NCBI GenBank assembly: GCA_947039505.1
Contig: CAMQYZ010000003.1
Coordinates: 111,323 to 172,645 of the forward strand
Direction of reading: 5' to 3'
Source of the DNA: an uncultured Mycoplasma sp.
Lineage (GTDB): Bacteria; Bacillota_I; Bacilli_A; Mycoplasmatales; Metamycoplasmataceae
DNA length: 61,323 nt
The position numbers and the translations under genes were made by a program. Numbering within the stretch: position 1 is the first letter of the stretch; each line of letters begins with the position of its first letter. Below the pieces are notes generated by a model. It made no database searches. It was not told the DNA's origin and saw only the letters and a program-made list of their open reading frames with translations. This document shows, in pieces, positions 15,962 to 61,323 of the stretch.

Positions 15962-15997
15962 ATAATGTAATAAAATTATATATAAGGATTGGTGCAC

Positions 15998-18739
15998 ATG
16001 ATTAAAACAAATAAAGTATTATTAGGATTAGGTTTGTCAACCGCCGCCGCATTACCTCTTGTAATTGTATCTTGTAGTTCTGGAGAAGAAGTTATTGAAG
16101 ACAACGTATTGACAACAGAAGTTACTAATAATTTTTTTGCTACTGGTGGTAAGTGAGAAGGAAAAACAGCTTTAGTGGCAGCAGATTTTGAAGGTTTTGA
16201 AAACATTGGCAATTCTGCTTTGAGTGGTAAATCTTTAGTTAGCGTTATTTTCTCTGATTCAATAACTAAAATTGGGCAAAATGCTTTGGCAAATAATGCA
16301 TTAACATCATTAAACATTCCAAATAGTGTTATTGAAATCGGTGATGGAGCATTTAACGATAATCCATCGTTAACAATAGATTCACCAATTACATTGCCTG
16401 CACAATTTGATACTCTTGAAGAACGAAGAAGAATTGGTTTACCTTTTGAACAACCAGCAATAAACTTAGAATTAACTCCTAAGACAAATATTGAAGCAAT
16501 TATGGAAAGTGAAGTAGCACATCTTACTGAAGTAGATCAAAATGTTAATGCTGCTTCACTAGCATTAATCAAAAAGCTTTTTGATATTAATGTAACAAAT
16601 GATGAAAATTTAACTAATGGATTAAAAATTAAAATGGTAACAGATGGATTAAACAAAACAATTTCATTAACTACTATTGAAGGTTTTACAATTAATGGAA
16701 CTTTAAATACAATCGATTCAACAAGCTTTACAATTGATATTCCGCCAATTGATCCACCAATTACAGGCAATGTATTAACAGAAGAACTTGTTAGAAGTTT
16801 TTTTGCTACTGGTGGTAAGTGAGCAGAAAAAACGGCTTTAGTGGCAGCAGATTTTGAAGGATTTACTTCTATTGCTGATTCTGCTTTGAGTGGTAAATCT
16901 TTAGTTAGCGTTATTTTCTCTGATTCAATAACTAAAATTGGGCAAAATGCTTTGGCAAATAATGCATTAACATCATTAAACATTCCAAATAGTGTTATTG
17001 AAATCGGTGATGGAGCATTTAACGATAATCCATCGTTAACAATAGATTCACCAATTACATTGCCTGCACAATTTGATACTCTTGAAGAACGAAGAAGAAT
17101 TGGTTTACCTTTTGAACAACCAGCAATAAACTTAGAATTAACTCCTAAGACAAATATTGAAGCAATTATGGAAAGTGAAGTAGCACATCTTACTGAAGTA
17201 GATCAAAATGTTAATGCTGCTTCACTAGCATTAATCAAAAAGCTTTTTGATATTAATGTAACAAATGATGAAAATTTAACTAATGGATTAAAAATTAAAA
17301 TGGTAACAGATGGATTAAACAAAACAATTTCATTAACTACTATTGAAGGTTTTACAATTAATGGAACTTTAAATACAATCGATTCAACAAGCTTTACAAT
17401 TGATATTCCGCCAATTGATCCACCAATTACAGGCAATGTATTAACAGAAGAACTTGTTAGAAGTTTTTTTGCTACTGGTGGTAAGTGAGCAGAAAAAACG
17501 GCTTTAGTGGCAGCAGATTTTGAAGGATTTACTTCTATTGCTGATTCTGCTTTGAGTGGTAAATCTTTAGTTAGCGTTATTTTCTCTGATTCAATAACTA
17601 AAATTGGGCAAAATGCTTTGGCAAATAATGCATTAACATCATTAAACATTCCAAATAGTGTTATTGAAATCGGTGATGGAGCATTTAACGATAATCCATC
17701 GTTAACAATAGATTCACCAATTACATTGCCTGCACAATTTGATACTCTTGAAGAACGAAGAAGAATTGGTTTACCTTTTGAACAACCAGCAATAAACTTA
17801 GAATTAACTCCTAAGACAAATATTGAAGCAATTATGGAAAGTGAAGTAGCACATCTTACTGAAGTAGATCAAAATGTTAATGCTGCTTCACTAGCATTAA
17901 TCAAAAAGCTTTTTGATATTAATGTAACAAATGATGAAAATTTAACTAATGGATTAAAAATTAAAATGGTAACAGATGGATTAAACAAAACAATTTCATT
18001 AACTACTATTGAAGGTTTTACAATTAATGGAACTTTAAATACAATCGATTCAACAAGCTTTACAATTGATATTCCGCCAATTGATCCACCAATTACAGGC
18101 AATGTATTAACAGAAGAACTTGTTAGAAGTTTTTTTGCTACTGGTGGTAAGTGAGCAGAAAAAACGGCTTTAGTGGCAGCAGATTTTGAAGGCTTTACTT
18201 CTATTGGTGAAAATGCTTTTCAAGGTCTTAATAATTTATCTAGCGTTGACCTACCTAATGAAATAATTAGAATTGAAAATCAAGCATTTTTTCAAACACA
18301 TTTAACACACATTACTTTAGGAAATGGAGTTCAACATATAGGTGATAGTGCTTTTTCTCATTGCTTTATCACAGAAATTATTTTGCCATCTAGTTTAAAA
18401 ACTATGGGCGAACAAGCTTTTTCACAAAACAATCTGACAAACATTATCATTCCTTCATCTTTAAAAATCATTCCTAATATAGCATTTACATATAATAAAT
18501 TAACATCAATAACTATTCCTAATTCAGTAACTCATATTGGTGATGGTGCTTTTTTTGATAACGAACTAACAGAAGTTAACATTCCTGACTCTGTAACATC
18601 TATTGGATCAACGGCATTTCAATATAATCGTTTTGCGATAATTCCTACTTTACCAAACGGAATTCTTGTTGGCGATATTTTTGATAATCAAAAAGTAAAT
18701 CCATCTTTGGAAATATATACAAGAAAAACCATCAAATAA
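15998..18739 (+). CDS. BspA-like lipoprotein 2 with three identical 222-residue repeats
   Basis: A 913-residue lipoprotein, in one frame once the TGA in each GGKW is read as Trp. It has a signal peptide with lipobox VIVSC, then three copies of a 222-residue module. Each module has FFATGGKW.KTALVAADFEGF, LRR_5 repeats (SITKIGQNALANN, SLNIPNSVIEIGDGAF), and a spacer beginning NLELTPKTNIEAIMESEVAHL and ending PPIDPPITGN. The last quarter is a long LRR_5 domain with the IYTRKTIK tail. The modules are identical at DNA level over almost two full periods, so copy number can change by recombination or slippage and alter antigen length. The Shine-Dalgarno sequence is AAGGATTGG. Confidence 0.88.
16214..18191 (+). 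repeat. 666-bp tandem repeat, about 2.97 copies, virtually identical
   Basis: Sequence 16214-17525 appears to recur unchanged as 16880-18191, a shift of exactly 666 bases (222 codons), as far as I can compare by eye. Divergence appears only before 16214 and at 18191-18192. Such identity without silent changes points to recent amplification, or homogenisation, of a surface-protein module. Confidence 0.88.
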
Positions 18740-18790
18740 ATTTTTACTATATTTAATAATCCAAAAGTTTGTTTAAAATAGATTTATTTT

Positions 18791-18819
18791 TTGGTTTTTT
18801 ATCTATATTTTATTATAAA
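18791..18819 (+). promoter_or_regulatory. Promoter of lipoprotein 3
   Basis: TTGGTT, 17 bases, TATAAA within a leader shared with the other lipoprotein genes (TTTTTATCTATATTTTA.TATAAAAT), 31 bases before the ATG at 18851. The Shine-Dalgarno sequence is AAAAGGATTGGTG. Confidence 0.6.
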
Positions 18820-18850
18820 ATAATTAAGAAAATTAAAAGGATTGGTGAAC

Positions 18851-19918
18851 ATGATTAAAACAAATAAACTTTTATTAGGATTAGGTTTATCAACTGTAGT
18901 AGGATTACCTCTTATGATAGTATCTTGTAGTTCTGGAGATGAAATTACAATCACTAATTTAGAATTAACACCTAAAACAAATATTGGGATAATTACAGAA
19001 AATGAAGTTGCTAAACTTAATAACAATTATCAAAATGTTAATGATAGTTCATTAACATTAATCAAAAAGCTTTTTGATATTCAAGGAACAACAACTGACC
19101 AAAATTTAATTAGTGGTTTACAAATTAAATTGTTATCAAATGAACTAAACAAAACAATCTCATTAAATGTTAATAATGGTTTTAAAATTAATGGAAATTT
19201 AACTAAAATTGATTCCATGAATTTTGTCATTAATGGTCCAGTTATTCCGCCAATTGATCCACCAATTACAGGTAATATATTAACAGAAGAACTTGTTAGA
19301 AGTTTTTTTGCTACTGGTGGTAAGTGAGCAGAAAAAACGGCTTTAGTGGCAGCAGATTTTGAAGGCTTTACTTCTATTGGTGAAAATGCTTTTCAAGGTC
19401 TTAATAATTTATCTAGCGTTGACCTACCTAATGAAATAATTAGAATTGAAAATCAAGCATTTTTTCAAACACATTTAACACACATTACTTTAGGAAATGG
19501 AGTTCAACATATAGGTGATAGTGCTTTTTCTCATTGCTTTATCACAGAAATTATTTTGCCATCTAGTTTAAAAACTATGGGCGAACAAGCTTTTTCACAA
19601 AACAATCTGACAAACATTATCATTCCTTCATCTTTAAAAATCATTCCTAATATAGCATTTACATATAATAAATTAACATCAATAACTATTCCTAATTCAG
19701 TAACTCATATTGGTGATGGTGCTTTTTTTGATAACGAACTAACAGAAGTTAACATTCCTGACTCTGTAACATCTATTGGATCAACGGCATTTCAATATAA
19801 TCGTTTTGCGATAATTCCTACTTTACCAAACGGAATTCTTGTTGGCGATATTTTTGATAATCAAAAAAATTCAATATCAAATAAAAAAATATCAAATAAT
19901 ACAAATAATATGTACTAA
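18851..19918 (+). CDS. BspA-like lipoprotein 3, altered C-terminus
   Basis: A 355-residue lipoprotein with lipobox MIVSC. One spacer module (NLELTPKTNIGIITENEV...INGNLTKID) comes first, then FFATGGKWAEKTALVAADF and the LRR_5 domain. From about 19280 to 19865 the DNA matches the last domain of the preceding gene (shifted by 1173 bases), apparently without a change, which suggests gene conversion or recent duplication. Identity ends at GDIFDNQK. After that the normal tail is replaced by NSISNKKISNNTNNMY and a TAA, so the 3' end is a recombination or deletion scar. The promoter and AAAAGGATTGG leader are intact. Confidence 0.85.
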
Positions 19919-20038
19919 TAAACCTTTTTATTATTTAATTCTCAAACAACATAATCAAGTTCAAAAATTTGATGTGTTTGGTGATTATAAAAAATTGATT
20001 TACTTAGAATTTAAAACCATTTTAGCAAAAAAACAATA

Positions 20039-20067
20039 TTGTTTTTTTATCTATATTTTAGTATAAA
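20039..20067 (+). promoter_or_regulatory. Promoter of lipoprotein 4
   Basis: TTGTTT, 17 bases, TATAAA, 31 bases before the ATG at 20099, with the shared leader and Shine-Dalgarno sequence TAAAGGATTAGTG. Confidence 0.6.
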
Positions 20068-20098
20068 ATATTTAATGAAAATTAAAGGATTAGTGAAC

Positions 20099-21964
20099 AT
20101 GATTAAAACGAATAAACTTTCATTAAAATTAGGCTTATCAACTATAATAGCATTGCCTCTTATGATAGTATCTTGTGATTCTGATGAAAAAATTACCATC
20201 ACTAATTTAGAATTATCTCCTAAAACAAATATTGGAATAATTTTGGAAAGTGAAGTAGCACATCTTAGTGAAGTTTATCAAAATGTTAATGATCATTCAT
20301 TAGCATTAATTAAAAAGCTTTTTGATATTCAAGGGACAACAACTGACCAAAATTTGATGAATGGTTTGCAAATTAAGATGGTATCAAATGGATTAAATAA
20401 AACAATTTTATTAAGTGTTAATATCTGATTAAATAACAGTAATGGCTTTAAAATTAATGGTAATTTAACTAGAATTAATTCAAATAATTTTACCATTGAT
20501 ACTCCTCCAGTTTTAGGTGATATATTAACAGAAGAACTTGTTAGAAGTTTTTTTGCTACTGGTGGTAAATGAGCAGGAAAAACAACTTTAGTGGCAACAG
20601 ATTTTGAAGGATTTACTTCTATTGCCAATTCTGCTTTAAGTGGTCAATCTTTAGTTAGTGTTATTTTCTCTGATTCAATAACTAAAATTGGGCAAGGTGC
20701 TTTGGCAAATAATGCATTAACATCATTGAATATTCCAAATAGTGTTATTGAAATCGGTGATGGAGCATTTGCAAATAATCAACTAACAATAGATTCACCA
20801 ATTACATTGCCTGCACAATTTGATAATCCATTGGAGCGCGAAAGAATTGGTTTACCTTTTGAACAACCAGCAATAAACTTAGAATTATCTCCTAAGACAA
20901 ATATTGAAGCAATTGCGGAAAATGAAGTAGCACATCTTAGTGAAATTAATCAAAATGTTGATGATCGTTCATTAGCATTAATTAAAAAGCTTTTTGATAT
21001 CCAAGGGATAGAAACAACTGAGCAAAATTTAATGGATGGTTTGCGAATTAGAATAGTATCAAATGGATTAGATAAAACAGTTTGATTAACTACTAATGAT
21101 GGTTTTAAAATTAATGGTAATTTAACTGAAATTAATTCCATGAGTTTTGTCATTGATACTCCACCAGTTTTAGGTGATATATTAACAGCAGAAATTGCTA
21201 ATAGTTTTTTTGCCGTTGGTGGTAAGTGAGCAGGAAAAACAGCTTTAGTGGCAACGGATTTTGAAGGATTTACTTCCATTGGCGATAGTGCTTTTCAAGA
21301 TCTTTCTCATTTATCTAGCGTTGACCTACATGATAAAATAATTAGAATTGAGGATCGAGCATTTTATCAAACAAATTTAAGACACATTACTTTAGGCAAG
21401 GGGGTTGAACACATAGGATTCGAGGCATTTTCTCGTTGCTCTATAAATAAAATTATTTTGCCATCTAGTTTAAAAACTATGGGTGAAGAAGCTTTTTCAG
21501 AAAACAATCTGACAAACATTATCATTCCTTCATCTTTAAAAATTATCTCTATTGGAGCATTTTTATCAAATAAATTAACATCAGTAATTATTCCTGATAC
21601 AATAACTGAAATTGGAGAATATGCTTTTCTTATTAATAATTTAACACAAATTAACATTCCTGACTCTGTGGTTTCAATTGGTCATAGTGCATTTGCTGTT
21701 AATAGTTTATCTGGAGAATTGGATTTACATGATTTGATAAACTTAGAAAGTATTGAATCAAATGCATTTCGTTTTAACAAAATATCATCCATTATTTGAC
21801 CAACCAATAGTAAAATAAACAGTATTGGATTAGAAGCTTTTGGTTTAAATAATTTTGGAACAAGTATCCCAAACTTTCCACCCGGATTAACTACAGAAAC
21901 TAACGGTGGAATTTCTCCAGAACAAATATTTACTAATAGAGGGCGAAAATTTTTCTTATCTTAA
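20099..21964 (+). CDS. BspA-like lipoprotein 4
   Basis: A 621-residue lipoprotein with lipobox MIVSC. Module order is spacer, LRR block (FFATGGKWAGKTTLVATDF), spacer, then a longer C-terminal LRR_5 domain with an ending not shared by the others (LSGELDLHDLINLESIESNAF, then GLNNFGTSIPNFPPG, last residues RKFFLS). The spacers are diverged versions of the NLEL.PKTNI module, so this gene is an older relative of the neighbouring gene with identical repeats. Five TGA codons (ISVNIW, GGKW twice, TVW, SSIIW) are Trp in one continuous frame. An upstream GTG/ATG alternative near 20039 lacks a Shine-Dalgarno sequence; the ATG at 20099 is preferred. Confidence 0.85.
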
Positions 21965-36480: not shown

Positions 36481-37185
36481 ATGAAAATAACCACGAAACA
36501 AAAAGAATCTTTAATAAACAAAATATACAATAAATTATCAGAAAGTGATAGCGAAAAGGGGTTTCCTGTTTTAGCTGCCACAATAGACAAACCCCATAAC
36601 AAAAATATCGTTGTACAAAACAAAAAAGATAAAAATAAAATGAAAGACAACAAAATAGAAACAGATATAAATAATCATGCAGAAATTATTTTATTAAAAG
36701 AAATACAAGAAAATAAAATAGAAATTGATTTTATCTTAATAACATTACCTCCTTGCTTTAATTGTTGAGAAAAAATAAAAGAATATATTCAAGAAAATAA
36801 TATAAAAATATTTTTCTTGACGGATGTTAGAGGCAAGAAAGACGAACGAAAATACCTCAAAGAAAATGATTATATTAACCACTTAAAATGAACAGAATTA
36901 AATCGAAATACTGACTTTACTTTGAAAACCAACTTTATAATAATGAGTTGTATTTTTGGTTTTATGAATCATAAAAAACCATCTAAAAATCCAACAAAAA
37001 TATTGGAATTTGCAAAACAAGAATTAAAAAAACTTAAGTTAGTTATAGATGATTTAAAAATTAAAAAAAATGAAATACAAGATGAACAATTACAAAGTAT
37101 GATTGATAAAACTAGAAGAATTAAAATTAAAAATATAACAATTAAAAATGCTAAAAAAGATAGAGAATTTTATTGAATTACCTAA
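36481..37185 (+). CDS. Cytidine-deaminase-fold protein
   Basis: A 234-residue protein with the zinc signature of the deaminase fold: NHAE (H66, E68) and TLPPCFNC (C92, C95). The N-terminus fits a substrate pocket (AATIDKPHN...). The C-terminal third is a lysine-rich helix (KKLKLVIDDLKIKKNEIQ) that is not part of the enzyme fold. Deaminases of nucleotides protect some bacteria by depleting dCTP during infection, and others edit bases, so a defence role fits this location but the substrate is unknown. A second member is at 44683-45429. The start ATG follows GAGGGTTTCTT. Confidence 0.75.
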
Positions 37186-44682: not shown

Positions 44683-45429
44683 TTATAATTTATCTAGCAA
44701 ATCTTTAATCTTCATATAGGATATATCTAAAAAATCGAATTCTTTAATTCGTTCAACCATAAGTAAAATTTCATCTGGGATTTTTTCTTTTGTTAAATTG
44801 GACTCAATTTGAACTTCTGACCAAATCTCTTTTAATATTTTGACAGTTTTTACAATAAGTTCTTGTTGTGTGATATTTACTAACTTTTGAGTTAAACAAG
44901 CGTTCATATAAACAAGAGCCATATAATAAAGTTGCATTCTTTGCAACTTATTTTCAATAACTGAAAAAATATTATTAATTTCTCCCTTGCAACTTGATTT
45001 TCATTCTTTTAAATAAAACTTATTCAATTTATTTCTGACATTGTCACAAATATAATAAATTTCTAAATTAACATTTTCATCAGAAGATATTTCTTTTAAA
45101 CATTCTGAACATGGTGGTATGGTGATAATTAAAATGAATTTTTTACTGCCGCTTAAAGTAATAACAGCGCCACCCAAGGCTTTATCATAACACTTGGTTT
45201 CGGCATGATTCTTATAATCTGTAGTTTTATCATTTAATCTTGAATTTACTTTTGAATTTATTAAATAACAATCTTCTAACATAATAGAAGCTGCTATAGA
45301 AAAACCTCTTCTTATAGACGATTTATTATCAATTATTTTTTTAACCATTGAATTAATAGAATCTTCATATTTTTTTGTTAATTGTCAATTCCTTCATATA
45401 AAATATAAATATTTTAAAAATTTTATCAT
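44683..45429 (-). CDS. Cytidine-deaminase-fold protein 2
   Basis: A 248-residue protein if the ATG at 45429 is used, or 221 from the ATG at 45348. The deaminase zinc site is clear: YKNHAET and TIPPCSEC (H48, E50, C80, C83 counted from the shorter start). The upstream codons are open through two TGA-coded Trp, but no strong Shine-Dalgarno sequence marks the longer start; TTA or TTG codons in between are other options. The C-terminal half is helical. It is the last gene in a same-strand series with an AIPR gene 60 bases upstream and a C5 methyltransferase before that. It is a relative of the deaminase at 36481. Confidence 0.7.
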
Positions 45430-48359: not shown

Positions 48360-48416
48360 ATACAAAGAAAAAATGCTAATTATAGATTAAATAAATAATT
48401 GGCACTTGGAGGAATC

Positions 48417-49736
48417 ATGGAATATACAACTCTCGATCAAATAATTAAAAAATGTGAAGAAATTAAGAATAAGAAGGTGAAGGACATTGTTTCTTCTGAA
48501 AATGTTTTAATATCAGCCGATAAGGGGAAACTAGGAAAATTAATTGAAGAAGAAGTATTTGGGATTAAAGCAAATAGTAATAGTGCTCCTGATTTTGAAA
48601 AATTAGGGATTGAACTAAAAGTAACTGGCTTAATTAAGTATAAGAAAAAAGATAATGAAGGAAGAAAATATAAGGCAAAGGAAAGAATTTCTCTAGGAAT
48701 GATTAATTATATCTCAATTCTGGATGAACCTACTTTTGAAAAATCACATATCTATTTCAAAATGCAAAAAACACTTTATATTTTTTATGAATACAGATAT
48801 GACAAACCAATGTCTGAATGAAAGATTGTTGATTTTAAATATGTTGAACTAAATTCATCAAACAATATCAAAACTCTAACGGAAGATTATAATATTATTT
48901 TTTCAAAAATTAAAGAAGGTAAAGCAGAGGAATTAAGCGAAGGACTAACTAAACAATTAGGAGCATGTACAAAAGGAACTGGAAAATCATTAGTTAAACA
49001 ACCAAATTCTAAAACATTAGTAAAACCTAGAGCATTTAGTTGAAAACCAAACCATGTTAACCAAATCTTTTATAGCGAAGGTATTGAAATTCCTGAAAGT
49101 GATGTAATGAATTTTATTATTGATAAAATTCAACCATTTCATGGACTTAGTATCAGAGAAATCTACAAAAAAATGAATTTGTCTATTCCTGAATCTAAAA
49201 ACCAAAAAGATACTATTGTTAATAAATTATTGGGAACTAAAAGTTATGCACAAATCCCGAATATTCAACAAAGTGTTTTTAAAATTAAAAATATAGAGCT
49301 CAAAAATAACGGCAAACTAAAGGAAGAAGTTGGTTTAATGAATGTGAATATCAGTGAATTTGAGAATGATATACCTTTTAATGAAAGTGAATTATATACA
49401 TTTTTAATTTCTTACAAATTTCTTTTTATAATATGACAAAAAATAGAGGAAGAATCTATTTTTAAAGAGATTAAACTTTTCCAATTTGATAGCTTGCTAG
49501 TTAAAAAGGCTGAATTTGTTTATAACGATACTAAAGAGAAGTTTTTAAATGGCATGAAACTAGAAGAAGTTAAGGGCAGAAGAATGTCTAACCTTATTCA
49601 TAAGTCTAATAATCAAGGATTTCACCTAAGACCTCATGGACAAGATAGCAAAGATACTATGACAACTCCTTTTGGACAAGTAATTACCAAACAACAATAT
49701 TGATTAAACGGCAACGAAGTAGAAGATGTTGTTTAA
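48417..49736 (+). CDS. Sau3AI/MutH-family type II restriction endonuclease
   Basis: A 439-residue Sau3AI-type enzyme that cuts GATC. The MutH-like N-terminal domain has KGKLGKLIEE (E44), PDFEKLGIELKVTG with D59, E66, K68, and the following KYKAKERISLG. The C-terminal half is a second, non-catalytic MutH-like domain, as in Sau3AI (SKNQKD, HKSNNQGFHLRPHGQDSKD). ATG at 48417 follows GGAGGAATC, a strong Shine-Dalgarno sequence. It is divergent from the C5 methyltransferase. The similar but inactivated copy follows 1.2 kb downstream. Four or more TGA are Trp. Confidence 0.88.
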
Positions 49737-50910: not shown

Positions 50911-52236
50911 ATCGAATACACAACACTTGATCAAATAATTACAAAATGTGCAGAAATTAAAAATAAGAAAGTTAAAGATATTTTAACATCACAAAACATC
51001 TTGGAATCCCATGATCAAACACAATTAGAAAACTTAATTAAAAAAGAAGTTTTTAAAATTAAGTTACAGAAAAACAATCCTAATAATTTTGAAAAATTAG
51101 GGATTCAATTAAAAGTAACTGGATTAATAAAATATAAAAAACCTGATAATGAAGGCAGAAAATATAAAGCGAAAGAAATTATTTCCCTAGGATCAATTAG
51201 TGACCAAGTAATTCTTGGCAAACCTAATTTTGAAAAATCAGCTTTATATACTCAAATGCAAAAGACTTTATATGTTTTTTATGAATATAGATATGACAAA
51301 CCAATGTCTGAATGAAAGATTATTGATTTTAAATATGTTGAACTAGATGCATCAACCAATATTAAAACATTAGTAAATGATTATGAACTGATCTTTGCAA
51401 AAATTAAAAAAGGTAAGAGTGAAGACTTAAATCATTCTTCGACAGAGGAATTAAGCATTACTATCCCTAAAAAAATACAACCCAAATTAGAAGGCTCCGT
51501 TTCATCCTGAGAGTTTTTATTAAAACCTAATTATGTTAATAAGATATTTTATAGCAAAAGTGTCAAAGTTAATGATGCTGACGTTATGTTTTCAATCGTT
51601 AATAAGATCCAACCTTTTCATGGATTAACCATTGGAGAAATATATAAGGAAATGAACTTACCTATTCCGGAAGCTAAAAATCAAAAAGATGCCATCATTA
51701 ATAAATTATTAAATACTAAGAGTTATGATGAAATCCTCAACATTAAACCAAGTGTTTTTAAAATTAGAAATATTGAATTAAAAAATAATGGCAAACTCAA
51801 AGATGAGATTGCGTTAATGAATGTTAATGATAATGAATTTTTGAATGATGTTCCCTTTAATGAAAGTGAACTATATACCTTTTTAATTTCTTATAAGTTT
51901 CTTTTCATTGTGTGACAAAAAAGAGGAGAAGAGTCTGTTTTCAAAGATGTGATGCTTTTTCAATTTAATAACAAACTAATTACAAAAGCTGAATTTGTTT
52001 ATAACGATACTAAAGAGAAGTTTTTAACAGGAATGGAATTAGAACGAGTTGGAGACAGAACAATGTCTAATTTGATACATAAATCAAGTAATATAGGGAT
52101 TTTACTAAGACCTCATGGACAAAATAGCAAAGATACGATGGCAACTCCCTTTGGACAAGTAATTACCAAACAACAATATTGACTGAATAGCAATGAAGTT
52201 GAACGAGTAATCGGAAATAATAAGGAATTTGAATAA
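50911..52236 (+). CDS. Catalytically dead Sau3AI-like paralogue without ATG start
   Basis: A 441-codon frame that aligns with the endonuclease at 48417 from end to end and has no TAA/TAG. The start that aligns with the ATG is ATC after TGGAGGCATC; ATC is permitted but poor in code 4. In the active-site block the catalytic residues are changed: E44 to K (LIKKE), D59 to N, and E66 to Q (IQLKVTG), while K68 is kept. The G40 and K36 equivalents are also lost. The C-terminal half is well preserved (SSNIGILLRPHGQNSKD). It is either a late pseudogene or a non-cutting homologue that binds GATC or pairs with the active enzyme. Confidence 0.7.
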
Positions 52237-53049: not shown

Positions 53050-53172
53050 TATTTTTATTATATAAATGATTTTAAAAAAATGCAGAATATTTACAAGAAA
53101 TTAATGAAAGAAATTTAATTTTATCAAGAGTTGTTACAATTAAACAAATACAATAATATAGAAGGATAACAT

Positions 53173-53409
53173 ATGACACAAAAAGAATTACAAGAGTGAT
53201 TTGAAGAATTAGAAAAATTAATGGAAAAACACCCAAGACAGTGAGACACATTTAAACGCACTTCAAGACATTTAGAAAATGTTTCTTGCATCTCTTGTAT
53301 TTATGGATCACCATCAAAAGAGCAATTAAATGAAAACCATCGATTTTCAATAGCAATGAATCCTGGAAGATGTGCTGTTTGTTTTATTAAAACAGAAGCT
53401 TTGCTTTAA
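53173..53409 (+). CDS. Small zinc-ribbon-like protein
   Basis: A 78-residue protein starting 6 bases after GGATAAC, with CISC and CAVC pairs (CxxC...CxxC) that could bind zinc, and the ending FIKTEALL. It has two TGA-coded Trp near the N-terminus (QEWFEE and RQWDTF). The function is unknown. It lies alone between two minus-strand genes. Confidence 0.6.
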
Positions 53410-53482
53410 AATAATTTTAAATTCTAGAAGTCAGTAATAATATGTGGTTACAAAGGTATTTTAAGGTATTAAGGAAATAGTT

Positions 53483-54598
53483 TTAATTATTTGATTTAAA
53501 CATTTTTTGATGAAACTTTAAATATTTTTCTTTTTTCGAAAAATCATCAATTGAAATTATTATATCTCCATTTTTGCAATTCAAAATTTCTTCAACTTGT
53601 TTAATATTGTTTTTTATTAATAATTCTCCGTTTTCTATTATGGTAAATTTGTATTTATCAAACAATGCATCACAATTAGCGCACAACAACAAACCATTGT
53701 TAATATCACTGATATATAGTATTTTATCTTCTATGGTTAAATTAGATTGTTTTTTAATTTGATTAACAGCCATTATATGAGAACCTCTTAAGGCTGTCTC
53801 ATGAAAAATATTGTGATGAAGATTTTGACATCTAGGAGGATTAAAATCATTTACCAACTTATCTTTAAATTCTTTTCTTGCTTTAACTTCATACCCCGCT
53901 TTTCTTTCATCATTATTATCTTGTTCTAATGAAATCATTAATTTTTCTAATTTTCATGTTTGATATTCATGCTTAACTTTTGCATTTATAAAATTCTTGA
54001 TTTTTGTTTTGGGAATAATTGAAACATTTTTTTTATTATTTTCTAATATATCTCCATCATTAATGCAATTTTTAATATTAAATAAAGAAACTCACCTAGA
54101 AGAGGGATTAGTGTTCAAACCCGAATTATTTAACTTGTTAGAAAGATTATTTTTATATCCAGTTGCTTCAAAAACCTGATTTGGAAGAACAAATAAATAG
54201 ACAAGATTATCGTTGTCCAATTCTAGATTCTCTGACACTCTTTTATAAGGTATATACAAATTAACAATAAAAACAATGTCATCTAATATAATGTTTTGAA
54301 AAACTTTGTTGTTGAAGGGAATAGATACTTTAACACGAGGGTTGGGGTTATCATGTTTGTTATTTCCTCCGCCATCTATATATTCTATGTAGAAATAAAC
54401 AATTTTATTATCAATTTTTATACTGAATAATCCTTCGCAATTATTCAATGATTTAATGTCATTAATAGAAATGTTCATATCTTCTGCAAACAGTTTAATA
54501 AACACTTCTTTGGTTCTTGTGTTGTAATAAGGATGAGTATGAAAAACTGGTTCAATTTCTTTATCAACTATTTCTTTGTAATAATTTTTTTTAGACAC
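53483..54598 (-). CDS. Type II restriction endonuclease, HNH type (second system)
   Basis: A 371-residue enzyme. Residues 1 to about 210 are a domain (HPYYNTRTKEVFIKLF, FYIEYIDGGGNNKHDN, VFIVNLYIPYKR) with no match I know, probably target recognition. The C-terminus has an HNH arrangement: RCQNLHHNIFHETAL, GSHIMAVNQIKKQS, and NGLLLCANCDALFDKYKF. It starts at GTG, which overlaps the methyltransferase stop by 8 bases, so translation is coupled to the methyltransferase. AAGGAG in the methyltransferase 3' end serves as ribosome site. The N-terminal domain is copied in the chimeric gene at 58482. Confidence 0.8.
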
Positions 54599-54985
54599 TC
54601 AAAATCTCCTTAATCAATTTATAAATAACATCTACATTAACTGCGTTGCCATATTGTTTATATGCCTGACTATCTTGAGGTGAAACAATATGTTTTGAAG
54701 GAAATGATTGAATATTGGCGTTTTCTCTAGGCGTCAAAAATCTTCATGTTGAATCTGTTTTGATAATTGGAACTTGAACCATTGCAACTAACGTTGGAAA
54801 AGTATGTGGTCTTCTGCACCTGATTCCAGATTGACGTAATTGTATAAATGATTCTTCAAACTTATAGTCCATGCCAGCTTGTCACTCTAATTTCTTATCT
54901 CTTTTACCATTAAATATTTTCTTATTTTTAAAATATCACTCATCAATAAAGTTTTTGTTTTGTTTATAGAATTCTCTCATTTTAT
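53972..54985 (-). repeat. Inverted repeat arm A (methyltransferase end + endonuclease start)
   Basis: A segment of about 1.0 kb covering the last third of the methyltransferase and the first 210 codons of the endonuclease. It recurs in opposite orientation at 58100-59127. The outer boundaries are at MREFYKQNK and at FIN.KVK. The copies differ by scattered substitutions and short gaps. Confidence 0.85.
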
Positions 54986-55913
54986 TTATATATATTTTTT
55001 TTCAATCAGGAAATTCAGAATCTATTTTAGTCTTTGAAAGCATTTCATCAATTCATATTACAGGTATTCTTACTTTAATGCTCAAAAAGTAATTAACAAA
55101 CTCTGCTCAAGATACAAATAATTTGTGCAATTGATCATTAACATTATATTTTTTATCAACTTTTTTTTCTAAAAAGTTTTTATGTATACCTATTTTATAT
55201 TCTTCTTTTAGAATGTTGATGGTGAGTTTTTTAACTTTAATTATAGATTTATGAATGGCCGGAATATAAACCCTTGGTCTATCTTGCGGTATTCCAAACT
55301 CTTTAGGAGAAAGTATTACAGGGTTTTCACTCATTATATAACCTCTTTCTTTCAAAGAATCTATAATTATTTTATAAGTTTCTCCATTATTATGGTTAAT
55401 TAGATGTTTTACATTTTCTAAAAGGAGTATTTTCGGTTTCTTTATATCTATTAGATTCAATATATCAAAAAACAAAGTTCCCTTAACTTTATCTAGAAAA
55501 CCCAGTTTCTTTCCGGCATTAGAAAAAGTTTGACAAGGAAATCCAGCAAATAATATATGAACATCATCGTTTCAATTTTCAAAATCAATATCCCTAATAT
55601 TTATTATATCTGTTGGTTTCATCTTAAAATTTAAGGAATAGTTATCAATAGCATTCTTATCTATTTCAGAGGCAAGCACACACTTTGTTTTTATTTTTTT
55701 TTCATTAGAAAATTTTTCAAAAGCAAAATGAAAACCTCCTATTCCAGCGAAAAGATCAATGTAATTAACTTGTTTTAAACTTTTAATATAATCTATTGGT
55801 TTATCGAAGATTTCATCTTCTATTATGTTGTTATTTATTGTTTTTGAAAAACCTTTAGAGAAATTGCCAAATTTGTCTATTTTATCAACGTTTTTTTTAG
55901 CTTCAATTTTCAT
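54591..55913 (-). CDS. DNA cytosine-C5 methyltransferase (second HNH-linked system)
   Basis: A 440-residue C5 methyltransferase. Motif I NYIDLFAGIGGFHFAF, motif IV FAGFPCQTFSNAGKK with catalytic Cys, motif VI LLLENVKHLINH, motif VIII IPQDRPRVYIPA, and motif X YKQYGNAVNV are intact. The target-recognition part lies at 55000-55150. Its 3' end overlaps the GTG of the HNH endonuclease by 8 bases. The first 50 residues are an extra N-terminal segment before motif I. The gene is divergent from the GmrSD-type gene at 56153 with palindromic sites in between. The last third is duplicated as a pseudogene at 58100. Confidence 0.88.
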
Positions 55914-55944
55914 ATATAAAAATTTTATACTAATTTTATGAATA

Positions 55945-56007
55945 ATTGATAAATGTTTGTTTTATCAATCTTTTATCAATTATTTTTTAAAAATAATTGA
56001 TAAAAAG
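55945..56007. promoter_or_regulatory. Cluster of TTTATCAAT inverted/direct repeats and a long palindrome
   Basis: TTTATCAAT occurs at 55961-55969 and 55972-55980, and its complement ATTGATAAA at 55945-55953 and 55996-56004. The last pair is the end of a long palindrome, TTTTATCAATTATTTTT... with AAAAATAATTGATAAAA. It lies between the divergent methyltransferase and GmrSD-type genes and looks like an operator cluster. Confidence 0.55.
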
Positions 56008-56152
56008 TTAATTTAAATGTATTGAATAATTGTGAAAATTCAAAATAACTAAAATATATATCAAAATACTAAACCACACTTATATAAAGCAATGATAGTT
56101 TTTAAATTTCATTTTTTTCCTGTATACTGTTTTTTACTGAAAGAGATAAGTC

Positions 56153-57931
56153 GTGGCTAAAATTTTAAATAATTCTTTATACAAAATATTAAGTGATAGC
56201 GGATATTTTGAGATACCAATTTATCAAAGAAATTACTCATGAACAGAAGAAGATTGCACTCTATTTTTAAATGATATATATGACAATTATATGAACAATA
56301 AAGAGGTTTGTCAAGAGGAATTAGAATATTATATTGGTAATATTATTATATTTGATTTAGGAGGAAATCACAGAATAGTTATAGACGGTCAACAAAGAAT
56401 AACAACCACCATTTTAATTCTTTCAGCCCTAAGAACTGTCATCAAAAATCAATCAAGTTCTGATGAAAAGAATTTATGAATAAAAGAATACATAAATCAA
56501 AATATACAATACAATAATACTAATTCAATAGGTTATAAACTAAAGTTAAATAATATTAATAATAGTCGTTTTTTAGAGGATATTATTTATGATAGAACAA
56601 GTTCAAAACCCAATGTTTACAATACTAACTACCTTGCAATAATTAAGAAGATTCAAGAAATAAAAGAAAATGATGAAAAATATGAAGACAATATTATAGA
56701 ATCTCTCAAAAAAACTTTATTAGTGCAAATAACGATTAAAGAACGTGATAATCCTAATAAAATATTTGAAGTAATTAATACTACAGGCAAGAAGCTTTTG
56801 GCTTCTGATTTAATAAAAAACTATATATTTTTTTATTCCTCTAAATATCTAAAAAGAATTGAAGATTTTTCAGAACAATATGTGAAAATTCAAAATTTAA
56901 TTGGAAAAGAAAATAATATTATGAAATTCTTTAGATATATTGTTCCAATGTTGGGTTCTGGTTTTAAATTACAGAAAGAAGGAAGTTATAAAATATATGA
57001 AGATTTTAAAAGGTTATTTGATAAAAGTCAAAATTATAAGTTTTCTGAAATAGATCCAAAAAATCCTGATGATATTCAAGTAGTTTTACAGGAGTTGAAA
57101 AAACATGCATTTATTTGGAATTTTATTAATAAATTTTCAAGTAAAGATAAGAAAGTGGATTTTTTCTACAAAACATTTTTTGAGACATTTGGGACATACT
57201 ACTCTTTAGTGCACCAATATTTATTTGATAATATAAAATTGGATAAAGGTACAGAATATTATATTGAGGAAATATTTATGTCAAGAATTTTAAGAATTAT
57301 CAATCACTTAATTTTTAGTTTATTATTGTTGGGGAAAGAAGAAAAGAATATCACAAGAGGAATTCCTAATATTTGACCAAATTATAAAAATGATGTTAAT
57401 GGTGAACAAATAAATTTTGAGGAATGATTTGAAAAAAGCGGTAAATCAGGTTTTAAATTATTTAACAAAAAAGAATTTAGAGCAAGAATTAATTCAACAC
57501 AAGTTTATACAAGTAGTTCTAAAAAAACTAAATATTTATTAATTGGTTTGGAAATGTTTGCTACAGGTTGAGAAAAAGATATTAATATTAATCCCAAAAA
57601 TATAGAGGTTGAGCACATAATTCCCCAAGCATGTGATAAATTAACTGATTTTTGATTTTGAGCAAAAGAAGAAAATGATGGAAATGAAGAAAAGACTGAT
57701 GAGTGAATTATTAAAAATTTACACACATTACCTAATTTAACAATCACTGTAGGTAAACTCAACAAAGAGATGAGTAATAGTTCGTTTTTAGATAAAAAGA
57801 TTTTTATGAAGAATCAATCGGCTTTTCACTTAAACAACCAAATAAATGATTACTCTAAATGAAGTGAATCAGAACTAAGTGACCGTGGAGAAAAATTAAC
57901 AAAACTTATAGTTGGTTTGTTGGAAATTTAA
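56153..57931 (+). CDS. GmrSD-type DUF262-DUF1524 restriction protein
   Basis: A 592-residue protein with both halves of GmrSD. The N-terminal DUF262 has FEIPIYQRNYSW and VIDGQQRITTTILIL, and FEVINTTGKKLLASDLIKNY matches the DUF262 NT.G..L...D motif. The C-terminal DUF1524 nuclease has IEVEHIIPQACDKL and NLHTLPNLTITVGKLNKEMSNSSF, the HNH residues. It cuts DNA with modified cytosine in the known enzymes. GTG start at 56153 follows GAGATAAG. It sits in the loop between the inverted repeats at 53972 and 58100 and is divergent from the methyltransferase. Several Trp are TGA-coded. Confidence 0.87.
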
Positions 57932-58099
57932 TTTAATCCTTATTTAATTACTCTTATATCACAATATCATCAAGATAAAATAACTGATTTTGCTTTTACC
58001 AATTTATAAAATTTTGAAAATAATAATTAAAATATATTGATTTATTTAAAAAAATATAACACTATGATATATAATTTATAAAACATAAAACAAAATTGT

Positions 58100-58484
58100 G
58101 TGATATAAAATGAGATAATTCTATAAACAAAACAAAACTTTTATTGATGAGTGATATTTAAAAAATAAGAAAATATTTAATGGTAAGAGACATAAGAAGT
58201 TAGAGTGACAAGTTGGCATGGATTATAAGTTTGAGGAATCATTCATTCAACTACGTCAATCTGGAATAAGGTGCAGAAAACCACATACTTTTCCAAGGTT
58301 GGTTGCAATGGTTAAAGTTCCAATTATCAAAAAAGATTCAACATGAAGATTTTTGAAACCTAAAGAAAACGCCAATATTCAATCATTTCCCTCAAAACAA
58401 ATTGTTTCATCTCAGCATATAAACAATATGGAAACGCAGTTAATGTAGATGTTATTTATAAATTGATTAAGGAGATTTTAAGTG
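58100..58484 (+). pseudogene. Decayed copy of methyltransferase C-terminus
   Basis: It aligns with the last 130 codons of the methyltransferase at 54591, in opposite orientation: FYKQNKTFIDEWYLKNKKIF, RQSGIRCRKPHTFPRLVAMV and ENANIQSFPSKQIVS. A G-to-T change makes a TAA right after the MR at the start of the copied segment, and a 10-base deletion near QIVSSQ shifts the frame. The end keeps the AAGGAGATTTTAAGTGCC that overlaps the start of the chimeric gene. No methyltransferase core is present. Confidence 0.85.
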
Positions 58485-59127
58485 CCTAACAAAAAAGAAA
58501 AAAATAATTATTATAAAGAAATTGTTAATAAAGAAATCGAACCAGTTTCTCGCAGTCATCCTTATTATAATATGAGGACAAAAGAAGTCTTTATTAAGCA
58601 GTTTGCAGAAGATATGGATATTTCTATCAATGACATTAAATCATCAAGCAATTGCGAAGCATTTTTTAGCACAAAGATAGATAATAAAATTGTTTATTTT
58701 TACATAGAATATATTGATGGCGGAGGGGAAAATAAAAATGATAACCCTAACCCTCGTGTTAAAGTATCTATTCCCTACAACAACAAAGTTTTTCAAGACA
58801 TAAAAGATCATATTGTTTTTATTGTGAATTTATATGTACCCTATAAAAGAGATTTAGAGAATTCAAAATTAGATTTAGATATTGATAATCTTATATATTT
58901 ATTAATTCTTCCCAGTGAAATTCGTAAAAGTAAAGTAAATTTAAATATTCTTTCTAACAAGTTAACTAATTCAAACTTGAAAACCAACTCTTCTTCAAGG
59001 TGAGTTTCTTTATCTGATATTAGAAATTGTATTAATGATGGAAATATAATGGAAAATAATAAAAAAAATGTTTCAATTATTCCTAAAACAAAAATTAACA
59101 ATTTTATAAATGAAAAAGTTAAAAATT
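58100..59127 (+). repeat. Inverted repeat arm B (methyltransferase fragment + endonuclease N-domain)
   Basis: The inverted partner of 53972-54985. Homology starts near ATGAGA.AATTCTATAAAC and runs through the methyltransferase remnant into the first 210 codons of the chimeric gene, ending at FINEKVK. The stretch between the arms, about 3.1 kb, holds most of the methyltransferase and the GmrSD gene. Confidence 0.85.
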
Positions 59128-61323
59128 CTATAAATACAAAAGAAATAGTTCCTAAAAATAACCTTAATAAAGAAGATTATTTAAAAAATATAAAAGATTA
59201 TGTTGATTCTGAAGATAAAAACACCCTTTTAAAAAAAATAACAGACTATGTTGATTCTGAAGCAAAACATAGTGAAAAATTTATAAAACCTATTTTTATT
59301 TTTGGTGAAAAAGGGGTAGGAAAATCTTTCTTTATAAAGAATAAAATGATTCATGAATTGAGAGAACGTAAGAATGAGGCGTTCAGCATAGAGGCTAACA
59401 ACTTAGAAGAACTTAAGAATGAAATATATGAATTGACTAATGAAAAAAAGTTGTGCGCTACATTTTTAAAAATAATAAGGAAGGATAGAAATATTACTAT
59501 TTTATTTCTAACAATAATATTTACACCATTTATGGGTTTATTAATAACAAGTTGTTCAAAAATTAATTTATCATCATTATGATCACTTGGTATAGTTATT
59601 TCATCATTAACTTTATTTTTTTGTATCCTAACAGCAATATATATTTTTTGATATCCACATTCAACTAAAGGAAAATTAACTAAATCATTCAAATCTCTTT
59701 CAAAAAAAATTGAAGATAAAAAATATTTCTATCTTTTTATAGATGATTTAAATAGAGTTAAGGATAAGAATGAAGTTTATAAAATATATAAATTTATTGA
59801 TAACATTCTCAAAAATACTGAGAGAATTTTTAAAAAAATTATTATTATTTATGTTAATGAAAAACAATTTTTCAACAAAGAAGATGAAGAAAATATAAAA
59901 AAATATATAGGATGTGAAATTATTATGACTATAAATGATTCCATAGATGATTTTATGACAAAATTTCAAAAAGGATTTGATTATATAAAAAACATTTTAA
60001 AGATTCCTGAAAATTTTGAATTAGTAAATCTAATGCCTAATTTTCCTGATTTTATTAAAAAATCTCCAGAAAAATTACACTTTGCTGAAATTTGCTTAAA
60101 AGAATTTAATTTATTCATAAATTTAAACAAAAATTCAGAGAAAAAATTTAAATATTTATTTGGTTATGATGATCAAAATGAAAAAAAATCTATAAAATTA
60201 GACATTGTATTTTACATTCAAATGCTTTTTTTAAACATTTGCTTTAAAGAAACTTTTGTAAAATGATCGGAACATTATTTAAACTATTACAAGATACCAA
60301 GGAATAATGAAAGCTCTGTAATTCCATTATTTTATCCCAATCTTGACTTAATATTAAACAAAGAAGAAGTTGATATTTGAAGTAAGATTAAACATAAAAA
60401 TATTAATAATAAAGAGGATTTTATAAATCTTGTTTTTGAAAATAAAAGTTTTAAATTAGTTGAATACTTAAATCAAGAAAATATTCCAAAAAATAAATTA
60501 TTAATAAATGATTTTTTGGAATATTTTTATAAATTGGATTTTTTTCTATCATTGTTTAGAGGATGTGATCCAGGCGAAAAAACTCAAAATAGTTTTTTTA
60601 TCTTTGAAAACTTTAAAAATTATGATATTGAGGTAATATATGAAACTTTTTTATATGGCATAAGAAAAAATAAATTAGAATCAAATAAACAACTTCCAGA
60701 ATCAAAGTACTCTAATTCATGTGAAAAAAGAGATATGAATATTAATTATTTGAATATTAATAAAAAAATTCTTGATAAATATGAAAAAAAGTGTGAAAAA
60801 GAAAAAAGGGATATTGAAAACCGTTTAAGAAGGTCATGAACGATGAATAGATTATTGATTAAATCTCATAAAGAGAGCGTAGTTTTAGGAAATATTAAAA
60901 AAACAAATATTGAGAAAAATACTGCTAAATATGTTGATCAAGAGCATATACTTCCTCAAAAAGAAGCTATTGAGAAATATGAAAAAGCGATAAGCATAGA
61001 TGAAAGCAACATTAATGCTTATGTGAATCAAGGGAACGCTCTAGTTAAACAAGGTAAATTGGATGAAGCTATAGAGGAATATGAAAAAGCAATAAATATA
61101 GATGAAACCAACATTAATGCTTATGTTAATTGAGGTTTGGCATTGTATAAGAAAGAAAAATTCGATGAAGCTATTGATAAATATGAAAAAGCAATAAGTA
61201 TAGATGAAAGAGACATTAATGCTTATGTGAATTGAGGTAATGTTTTGAGTAAACAAGGTAAATTTAATGAAGCTATTGAGAAATATGAAAAAGCGATAAG
61301 CATAGATGAAAGCAACATTAATG
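58482..61323 (+). CDS. Chimera: endonuclease N-domain + membrane KAP NTPase + TPR repeats, partial
   Basis: One open frame of over 947 codons, running off the right edge; all breaks are TGA (Trp). Residues 1-215 are a close copy of the recognition half of the HNH endonuclease at 53483 (SHPYYNMRTKEVFIKQF, FYIEYIDGGGENKNDN). Then comes a KAP NTPase: Walker A FGEKGVGKS (about 274-282), two transmembrane helices (about 335-362 and 368-393, ILFLTIIFTPFMGLLITS and ISSLTLFFCILTAIYIF), and Walker B YLFIDDLNR (417-425), the KAP layout. TPR-type 34-residue repeats follow from about 826 (EAIEKYEKAISIDESNINAY). GTG start after AAGGAG. A nuclease domain is replaced by a membrane NTPase with TPR sensor. 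Confidence 0.83.

What the first reader, a model, noticed from the sequence alone, without database searches (positions are those of the whole stretch)
53972..59127. Inverted 1-kb repeats could flip one methyltransferase between two effectors
The methyltransferase-end/endonuclease-start segment exists as inverted copies around a 3.1-kb stretch. Recombination within the shared N-domain would carry the intact methyltransferase to the other side and place it directly upstream of the KAP-TPR chimera, in the same overlapping arrangement, while the HNH half would be left behind the decayed copy. That would make an invertible effector switch from which only one downstream protein is linked to the methyltransferase at a time.
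Basis: inference. Interest (0 to 1): 0.88.

Follow-up and report, generated by a model that had tools for sequence, protein, structure and literature searches.

The report
Endonuclease domain copied onto membrane ATPase
In a Mycoplasma-like bacterium, part of a DNA-restriction enzyme gene was copied in reverse orientation and joined to a gene for a predicted membrane-bound ATPase, giving what is probably a second defence protein with the same DNA-reading domain; the copies could in principle flip the DNA between them, but nothing found here shows that they do.

Summary
The inverted repeat is real. Arm A (53973-55002) and arm B (58088-59122) flank 3,085 bp and are 86% identical over 1,017 aligned bases. 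The geometry also holds: an exchange in the 47-bp perfect block at the methyltransferase end, or in the N-domain, would put the intact methyltransferase in frame before the chimera.

A working switch is not supported. The N-domain copies are old (dS 0.57, against 0.05-0.17 for island genes shared with another species of the genus). The genome has RecA but no hit to two site-specific recombinase families, and no flipped layout was seen in relatives.

I favour a one-time inverted partial duplication. A type II-like pair (C5 methyltransferase plus N-domain/HNH endonuclease; adjacent in 11 of 11 genomes with the pair) donated its methyltransferase tail, ribosome-binding site and N-domain to a P-loop NTPase-TPR gene. 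The chimera stays open for 947 codons, its N-domain indels are all multiples of three, and its N-domain changes are balanced between copies. The methyltransferase tail is truncated, frameshifted and altered at five invariant residues. The N-domain models as nuclease-like. In 320 genomes it is fused to something other than HNH only here. The NTPase matches KAP by topology only.

The parts
53483..54598 (-). N-domain/HNH endonuclease (371 aa from GTG 54598, overlapping the methyltransferase stop by 8 nt)
   Evidence: HNH_2 E=2.9e-9; MAG4270 family 29.6 bits, below its cut-off of 53; model, mean pLDDT 83
54591..55913 (-). intact C5-cytosine DNA methyltransferase (440 aa)
   Evidence: PF00145 E=1.5e-69; TIGR00675
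53973..55002 (-). inverted-repeat arm A: methyltransferase 3' part plus N-domain
58088..59122 (+). inverted-repeat arm B: decayed methyltransferase tail plus N-domain of the chimera
54601..54647 (-). longest perfect block (47 bp) in arm A, across the methyltransferase 3' end and AAGGAG (54606-54611)
58433..58479 (+). the same 47-bp block in arm B, with AAGGAG at 58469-58474 before GTG 58482
58088..58481 (+). methyltransferase remnant: 5'-truncated, 10-nt deletion at about 58414, five residues invariant in 7 relatives changed
56153..57931 (+). GmrSD (DUF262) protein inside the loop, divergent from the methyltransferase
55914..56152 (.). divergent intergenic region inside the loop; would drive either side in either orientation (inferred, no promoter mapped)
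58482..61322 (+). chimera: N-domain + P-loop NTPase + TPR (947 codons without stop, cut by the contig end)
58482..59123 (+). N-domain of the chimera (214 aa, 76% identical to the endonuclease's)
   Evidence: (pTM 0.84)
59180..59267 (+). two 40-nt direct copies (88%) at 48-nt spacing in the linker between N-domain and NTPase
   Evidence: D3
59304..59747 (+). Walker A (residue 275), two TM-like segments (336-359, 363-391), Walker B (417)
60960..61322 (+). TPR repeats (102-nt period), continuing past the contig end
   Evidence: (D1)

Best explanation
A one-time inverted partial duplication inside a defence island, followed by gene fusion. A type II-like restriction-modification pair (C5 methyltransferase overlapping an N-domain/HNH endonuclease) gave a second copy of its methyltransferase tail, ribosome-binding site and N-domain, in inverted orientation, to the 5' end of a gene for a membrane-anchored P-loop NTPase. 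The product is a chimera: N-domain, NTPase with two transmembrane segments between Walker A and B, then TPR repeats. Likely mechanism: both proteins use the N-domain, probably a nuclease-fold DNA-reading domain, to find the same unmethylated site. The HNH protein then cuts, while the NTPase-TPR protein acts at the membrane as a second, probably abortive, effector, and the one methyltransferase shields host DNA from both. Shown: the repeat, the chimera's intact frame, decay of the methyltransferase copy, constraint on both N-domains, the endonuclease layout in relatives, and a stand-alone NTPase relative in another species of the genus. Inferred: shared target site, methyl-sensitivity, membrane effector role.
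For: (1) Chimera under coding constraint: 947 codons open. The three N-domain indels are 12, 3 and 6 nt, while the one in the methyltransferase tail is 10 nt. N-domain dN/dS is about 0.25, and amino-acid changes are balanced (chimera departs from the outgroup state 17 times, endonuclease 19, undetermined 14). (2) Methyltransferase copy decays: at 5 of its 11 differences the residue is invariant in the other 7 methyltransferases and only the copy has changed. (3) Donor: methyltransferase and N-domain/HNH gene are adjacent in 11 of 11 genomes that have the pair, same strand in 10 and convergent in one. (4) Recipient: the NTPase part occurs in 3 of 320 genomes of the order. In the same-genus genome G009 it starts as a separate gene. 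(5) Uniqueness: 12 loci in 11 of 320 genomes have a match reaching into the N-domain; 11 of 12 run on into HNH and only the chimera does not. (6) Fold: models of both N-domains give nucleases in front; for the chimera's, the first 21 of 50 rows are nucleases or nuclease complexes.
Against: The methyltransferase tails differ less at synonymous sites than the N-domains (12 of 106 against 34 of 156 codons, p=0.03). A single duplication of both does not predict this, and it hints at a later exchange between the arms or at two events. The best N-domain Z is 7.2, which the tool's own note says can be only a common arrangement. KAP membership fails by profile. The chimera's C-terminus is unseen. Nothing measures expression, methyl-sensitivity or defence.
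Confidence: 0.58

Rival explanations
1. Invertible effector switch: recombination between the arms, most plausibly in the 47-bp perfect block, flips the 3.1-kb loop and places the methyltransferase before either the HNH endonuclease or the NTPase-TPR chimera.
For: Perfect blocks of 47, 32, 28, 27, 26, 23, 21, 20 and 20 nt; a published survey used 20 bp of perfect identity as its criterion for inverting hsdS systems (PMC7394358, passages). Codon phase is kept. RecA present. Longest-run test over the whole arm p=0.03, but 0.12 within the methyltransferase tail. Lower synonymous divergence in the methyltransferase tail, p=0.03. MutS was not found in Mollicutes (PMC4007778, passages), which would relax the barrier to recombining diverged DNA.
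Against: N-domain dS 0.57 with no homogenised quarter against 0.05-0.17 for island genes shared between species. No tyrosine or serine recombinase family hit in the genome. No flipped layout in any relative seen. The effector not behind the methyltransferase would still be downstream of GmrSD.
Confidence: 0.1
2. Remains of two related restriction-modification systems acquired separately: the second lost most of its methyltransferase, and its endonuclease half was replaced by the NTPase-TPR gene.
For: Old N-domain divergence; the island exchanges genes between species and holds a second diverged gene pair of another kind (two Sau3AI-like genes, dS 1.0).
Against: The two N-domains are each other's closest relatives (76% against at most 39%). 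The methyltransferase tail is younger by synonymous sites, which separate arrival does not explain without later conversion.
Confidence: 0.2
3. Passive by-product: the chimera is transcribed little or not at all and the repeats are relics of island turnover.
For: The island is visibly in flux; only one genome has the fusion.
Against: Open frame over 947 codons, in-frame indels only, balanced N-domain changes and kept ribosome-binding site, against clear decay of the neighbouring methyltransferase piece.
Confidence: 0.12

Closest known systems
Type II restriction-modification pair with HNH endonuclease (NCBIfam NF045952 MAG4270 family as nearest named family)
   Same: C5 methyltransferase overlapping or adjacent to an N-domain/HNH gene; the same pair in Spiroplasma, Mycoplasma and Ureaplasma records
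   Different: The N-domain has been copied onto a second, non-HNH protein; the window's endonuclease scores 29.6 bits against a cut-off of 53
Inverting type I hsdS systems (SpnD39III/Spn556II)
   Same: Inverted copies of a restriction-modification gene segment with perfect blocks over 20 bp
   Different: There the specificity domain is exchanged and inverted forms were observed, one inversion needing the locus's recombinase PsrA (PMC4948785, passages); here a methyltransferase would be exchanged, the arms are diverged, and no recombinase or isomer was found
Modification-dependent EVE-HNH endonucleases (VcaM4I, TagI)
   Same: HNH half: VcaM4I Z 13.8, rmsd 2.9, 125 aligned; TagI Z 10.2, rmsd 2.8, 108 aligned; profile E=1.8e-13
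   Different: The N-terminal half aligns to other nucleases in the rows listed, and a methyltransferase is next door in all 11 genomes with the pair
KAP family P-loop NTPases (PF07693)
   Same: Two TM-like segments between Walker A and Walker B; that this is typical of KAP proteins is recalled
   Different: No PF07693 match at this protein up to E=1, although other proteins of the genome match; profile comparison with the genome's KAP-like proteins 2.8%
MORC/Z1 restriction-modification systems (PMC2292703, abstract read)
   Same: Some relatives of this methyltransferase sit beside GHKL-ATPase and Z1 genes (in one search judged by sequence beginnings only)
   Different: No such genes were seen beside the pair in the window

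Membership tests
Inverting (phase-variable) restriction-modification locus | inverted repeats with perfect blocks of at least 20 bp | tested here: met
   47, 32, 28, 27, 26, 23, 21, 20, 20 nt; criterion from PMC7394358
Inverting (phase-variable) restriction-modification locus | site-specific recombinase in the genome | tested here: not met
   PF00589 and PF00239: 0 of 1 genome each, 97% complete; RecA present; other recombinase families not searched
Inverting (phase-variable) restriction-modification locus | both orientations observed | not testable with these tools
   no reads, one genome per species; none of the relatives seen carries both effectors
Type II restriction-modification system | C5 methyltransferase with catalytic motifs | tested here: met
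   PF00145 E=1.5e-69; GFPCQTFSNAG and ENVKH invariant in 8 of 8
Type II restriction-modification system | dedicated endonuclease gene next to the methyltransferase | tested here: met
   11 of 11 genomes, 10 on the same strand
Type II restriction-modification system | methylation protects from cleavage | not testable with these tools
   needs biochemistry
MAG4270 family endonuclease (NF045952) | score over the curated cut-off | tested here: not met
   29.6 bits, cut-off 53
KAP NTPase (PF07693) | profile match | tested here: not met
   no match at C3:169804-172644 up to E=1; hhalign 2.8%
KAP NTPase (PF07693) | TM segments inserted between Walker A and B | tested here: met
   Walker A 275, TM-like 336-359 and 363-391, Walker B 417
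PD-(D/E)XK fold (N-domain) | structural match to known members | tested here: inconclusive
   best Z 7.2 (I-Ssp6803I) in both models; nucleases fill the first 21 of 50 rows; Foldseek E 0.11 or worse for the single domain
PD-(D/E)XK fold (N-domain) | D...(D/E)XK active site | tested here: inconclusive
   K90 invariant, E72 and D75 nearly invariant but missing in G008; no acid two before K90 in the window's copies

The most novel reading that the evidence does not exclude
A restriction-modification system with two effectors that share one recognition domain: an HNH nuclease that cuts unmethylated DNA, and a membrane NTPase-TPR protein that the same domain brings to, or switches on at, unmethylated DNA, all restrained by one methyltransferase. 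In its boldest form the 47-bp perfect inverted block lets the 3.1-kb loop flip rarely, so the methyltransferase operon ends in either effector.
Probability: 0.25. Interest if true: 0.8.

Novelty: new variant of a known kind. Interest (0 to 1): 0.5.

Why it matters
Restriction enzymes are normally understood as cutters. A recognition domain moved onto a predicted membrane NTPase would mean that methylation status can control an effector other than a nuclease, and would show a route by which such proteins arise: inverted duplication inside a defence island, carrying the ribosome-binding site along. It is directly testable with one methyltransferase and two proteins.

Tried and rejected
Table 11 reading: rejected, the genes are fragmented. 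Looking for an inverted isomer: plasmid and phage records and viral contigs gave no relative; genome collections hold one genome per species, so strains could not be compared. The window's own record may be left out of those collections, as the tools say. A class-wide N-domain search (395 genomes) added only one weak match at 7.9e-4 in a frame with stops. A genome-contig scan with the N-domain alignment was impossible, so the methyltransferase alignment was used (347 relatives, 80 kept; N-domain in 6 of 80; the contig lengths show these are six of the genomes already found). PDB sequence search for the NTPase part: nothing better than E=0.06. Site-specific recombination: rejected for want of PF00589 and PF00239 hits, but I did not search other recombinase or transposase families. 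A perfect 47-bp block as a signature of recurrent exchange: weak (p=0.03 over the arm, 0.12 within the more conserved tail). Joining C3 to C1: no exact overlap; collinearity with genome G004 makes it likely, not proven. No EVE or other modification-sensor entry stood among the rows listed for the N-domain; these are second looks at Foldseek's list, so that absence is not a test. No paper held the term MAG4270; searches for KAP NTPase with restriction and for invertible with defence terms listed nothing like this chimera, as far as their listings show.

Full report
1. Observation. The window lies in an 804-kb, 8-contig genome (97% complete) that needs TGA read as tryptophan. The reported inverted copies exist: 53973-55002 and 58088-59122, 3,085 nt apart, 1,017 aligned bases of which 877 are identical, with no third copy in the genome. 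Arm A holds the last third of an intact C5 methyltransferase (54591-55913, -) and about 210 residues of the N-domain/HNH endonuclease that overlaps it (53483-54598, -). Arm B holds the same methyltransferase tail, here truncated and with a 10-nt deletion, and the N-domain of a long protein on the + strand (58482-61322). Between the arms lie the rest of the methyltransferase and, divergent from it, a GmrSD-type gene (56153-57931).

2. What the chimera is. From residue 275 it has Walker A, two TM-like segments and Walker B, then TPR repeats from about residue 827. The window ends at the contig end inside the TPR array. Contig C1 begins with an open TPR frame that stops at base 326, and the island of genome G004 (same genus) is collinear first with the window and then with C1, so the protein probably ends there; no exact overlap joins the contigs. 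The NTPase part is rare: 3 of 320 genomes of the order, one of them a same-genus genome (G009) in which it begins on its own, without an N-domain, beside a GmrSD gene. It resembles KAP proteins in layout only.

3. Is the chimera a working protein? The evidence says it is kept. All three N-domain indels are multiples of three; the methyltransferase one is not. N-domain dS is 0.57 and dN 0.14. Of 50 amino-acid differences the chimera departs from the relatives' state in 17 and the endonuclease in 19, with 14 undetermined. By contrast the methyltransferase piece has changed at five positions that are invariant in the other seven methyltransferases, and the intact gene at none of those. Its last 47 bases, with AAGGAG before the GTG start, are perfectly kept in both arms.

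4. Where the parts come from. The methyltransferase and the N-domain/HNH gene are a standing pair: adjacent in 11 of 11 genomes (window, G050, G020, G089, G008, G191, G202, G283, G285, G246, G162), on the same strand in all but G008, where they converge. Matches reaching into the N-domain were found at 12 loci in 11 of 320 genomes of the order; 11 continue into HNH and only the chimera does not (45 further genomes of the 56 with a match matched outside the N-domain start, mostly the HNH part, and were not counted). In 395 genomes of the class only the window's two copies and one weak match appeared. Beside some relatives of the methyltransferase lie GHKL-ATPase and Z1 genes, as in the MORC-type systems of PMC2292703 (abstract read).

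5. What the N-domain is. Models of the endonuclease (pLDDT 83) and of the chimera's N-domain alone (pTM 0.84) both have I-Ssp6803I as best N-domain match (Z 7.2; rmsd 3.8 over 128 and 3.4 over 123 residues), with RecU, Hjc, SPARDA nucleases and PvuII among the next rows; that these share the PD-(D/E)XK fold is recalled. Z of 7 can be chance by the tool's note and Foldseek alone gives nothing significant, so this is a lead. The usual acid two residues before the conserved lysine is missing in the window's copies, and two nearly invariant acids are absent in G008, which fits a DNA-reading role better than a cutting one. The HNH half resembles VcaM4I and TagI.

6. The switch. For: codon phase is kept at every N-domain block, and perfect blocks exceed the 20-bp criterion of PMC7394358; RecA is present; MutS was not found in Mollicutes (PMC4007778, passages; not tested in this genome); the methyltransferase tails differ less at synonymous sites than the N-domains (12 of 106 against 34 of 156, p=0.03), as after an exchange. 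Against: old, evenly diverged N-domains when island genes shared with G004 show dS 0.05-0.17; no hit to two site-specific recombinase families; no flipped layout in relatives. In pneumococcus, where inversions are real, one of three needs the locus's recombinase and deleting recA had no visible effect (PMC4948785, passages), so RecA alone is a weak argument. A flip would also not silence either effector, because the loop carries a divergent gene pair and so, by inference, promoters for both sides. I put the switch at about 0.1.

7. Verdict. The sequence reading was good and the geometry correct, but the better-supported story is a domain capture by inverted duplication: a restriction enzyme's recognition domain grafted onto a predicted membrane NTPase. 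It is a new variant of a known kind, supported by one genome.

Noticed in passing
53126-53417: A small unit of about 290 bp with a 78-aa ORF (53173-53409), 94% identical in genome G004 and 91% in G009 of the same genus, with different flanks; its right edge lies just before the endonuclease stop. No Pfam family at a meaningful E-value.
   Followed up: partly
60963-61323 and L055:1-326: The contig breaks inside a TPR array of 102-nt period; C1 starts with an open TPR frame. Another protein of the island (L055:11597-12606) is FRG-TPR and is split into two frames here but whole in G004.
   Followed up: partly
48399-49736 and 51001-52236: Two direct copies of genes with a MutH domain (Sau3AI-like, a recalled label), dS 1.0 to each other; the second is 93% identical to a G004 protein.
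   Followed up: partly
27903-48321: Dense defence island: KAP protein, TIR protein, HNH, helicase-DUF2726, two deaminase-like proteins (36481-37185, 44683-45429), GmrSD_N, type III restriction-modification, AIPR/AbiU-like, second C5 methyltransferase.
   Followed up: no
15989-21964: BspA-type leucine-rich-repeat genes; table-11 ORFs recur every 666 bp at 16175-18154, suggesting long tandem repeats.
   Followed up: no
L055:5273-5754: The C-terminal HNH part of a C1 gene is 97% identical in DNA to a stretch of G004 whose upstream part is unrelated, another sign of domain-level exchange in these islands.
   Followed up: no
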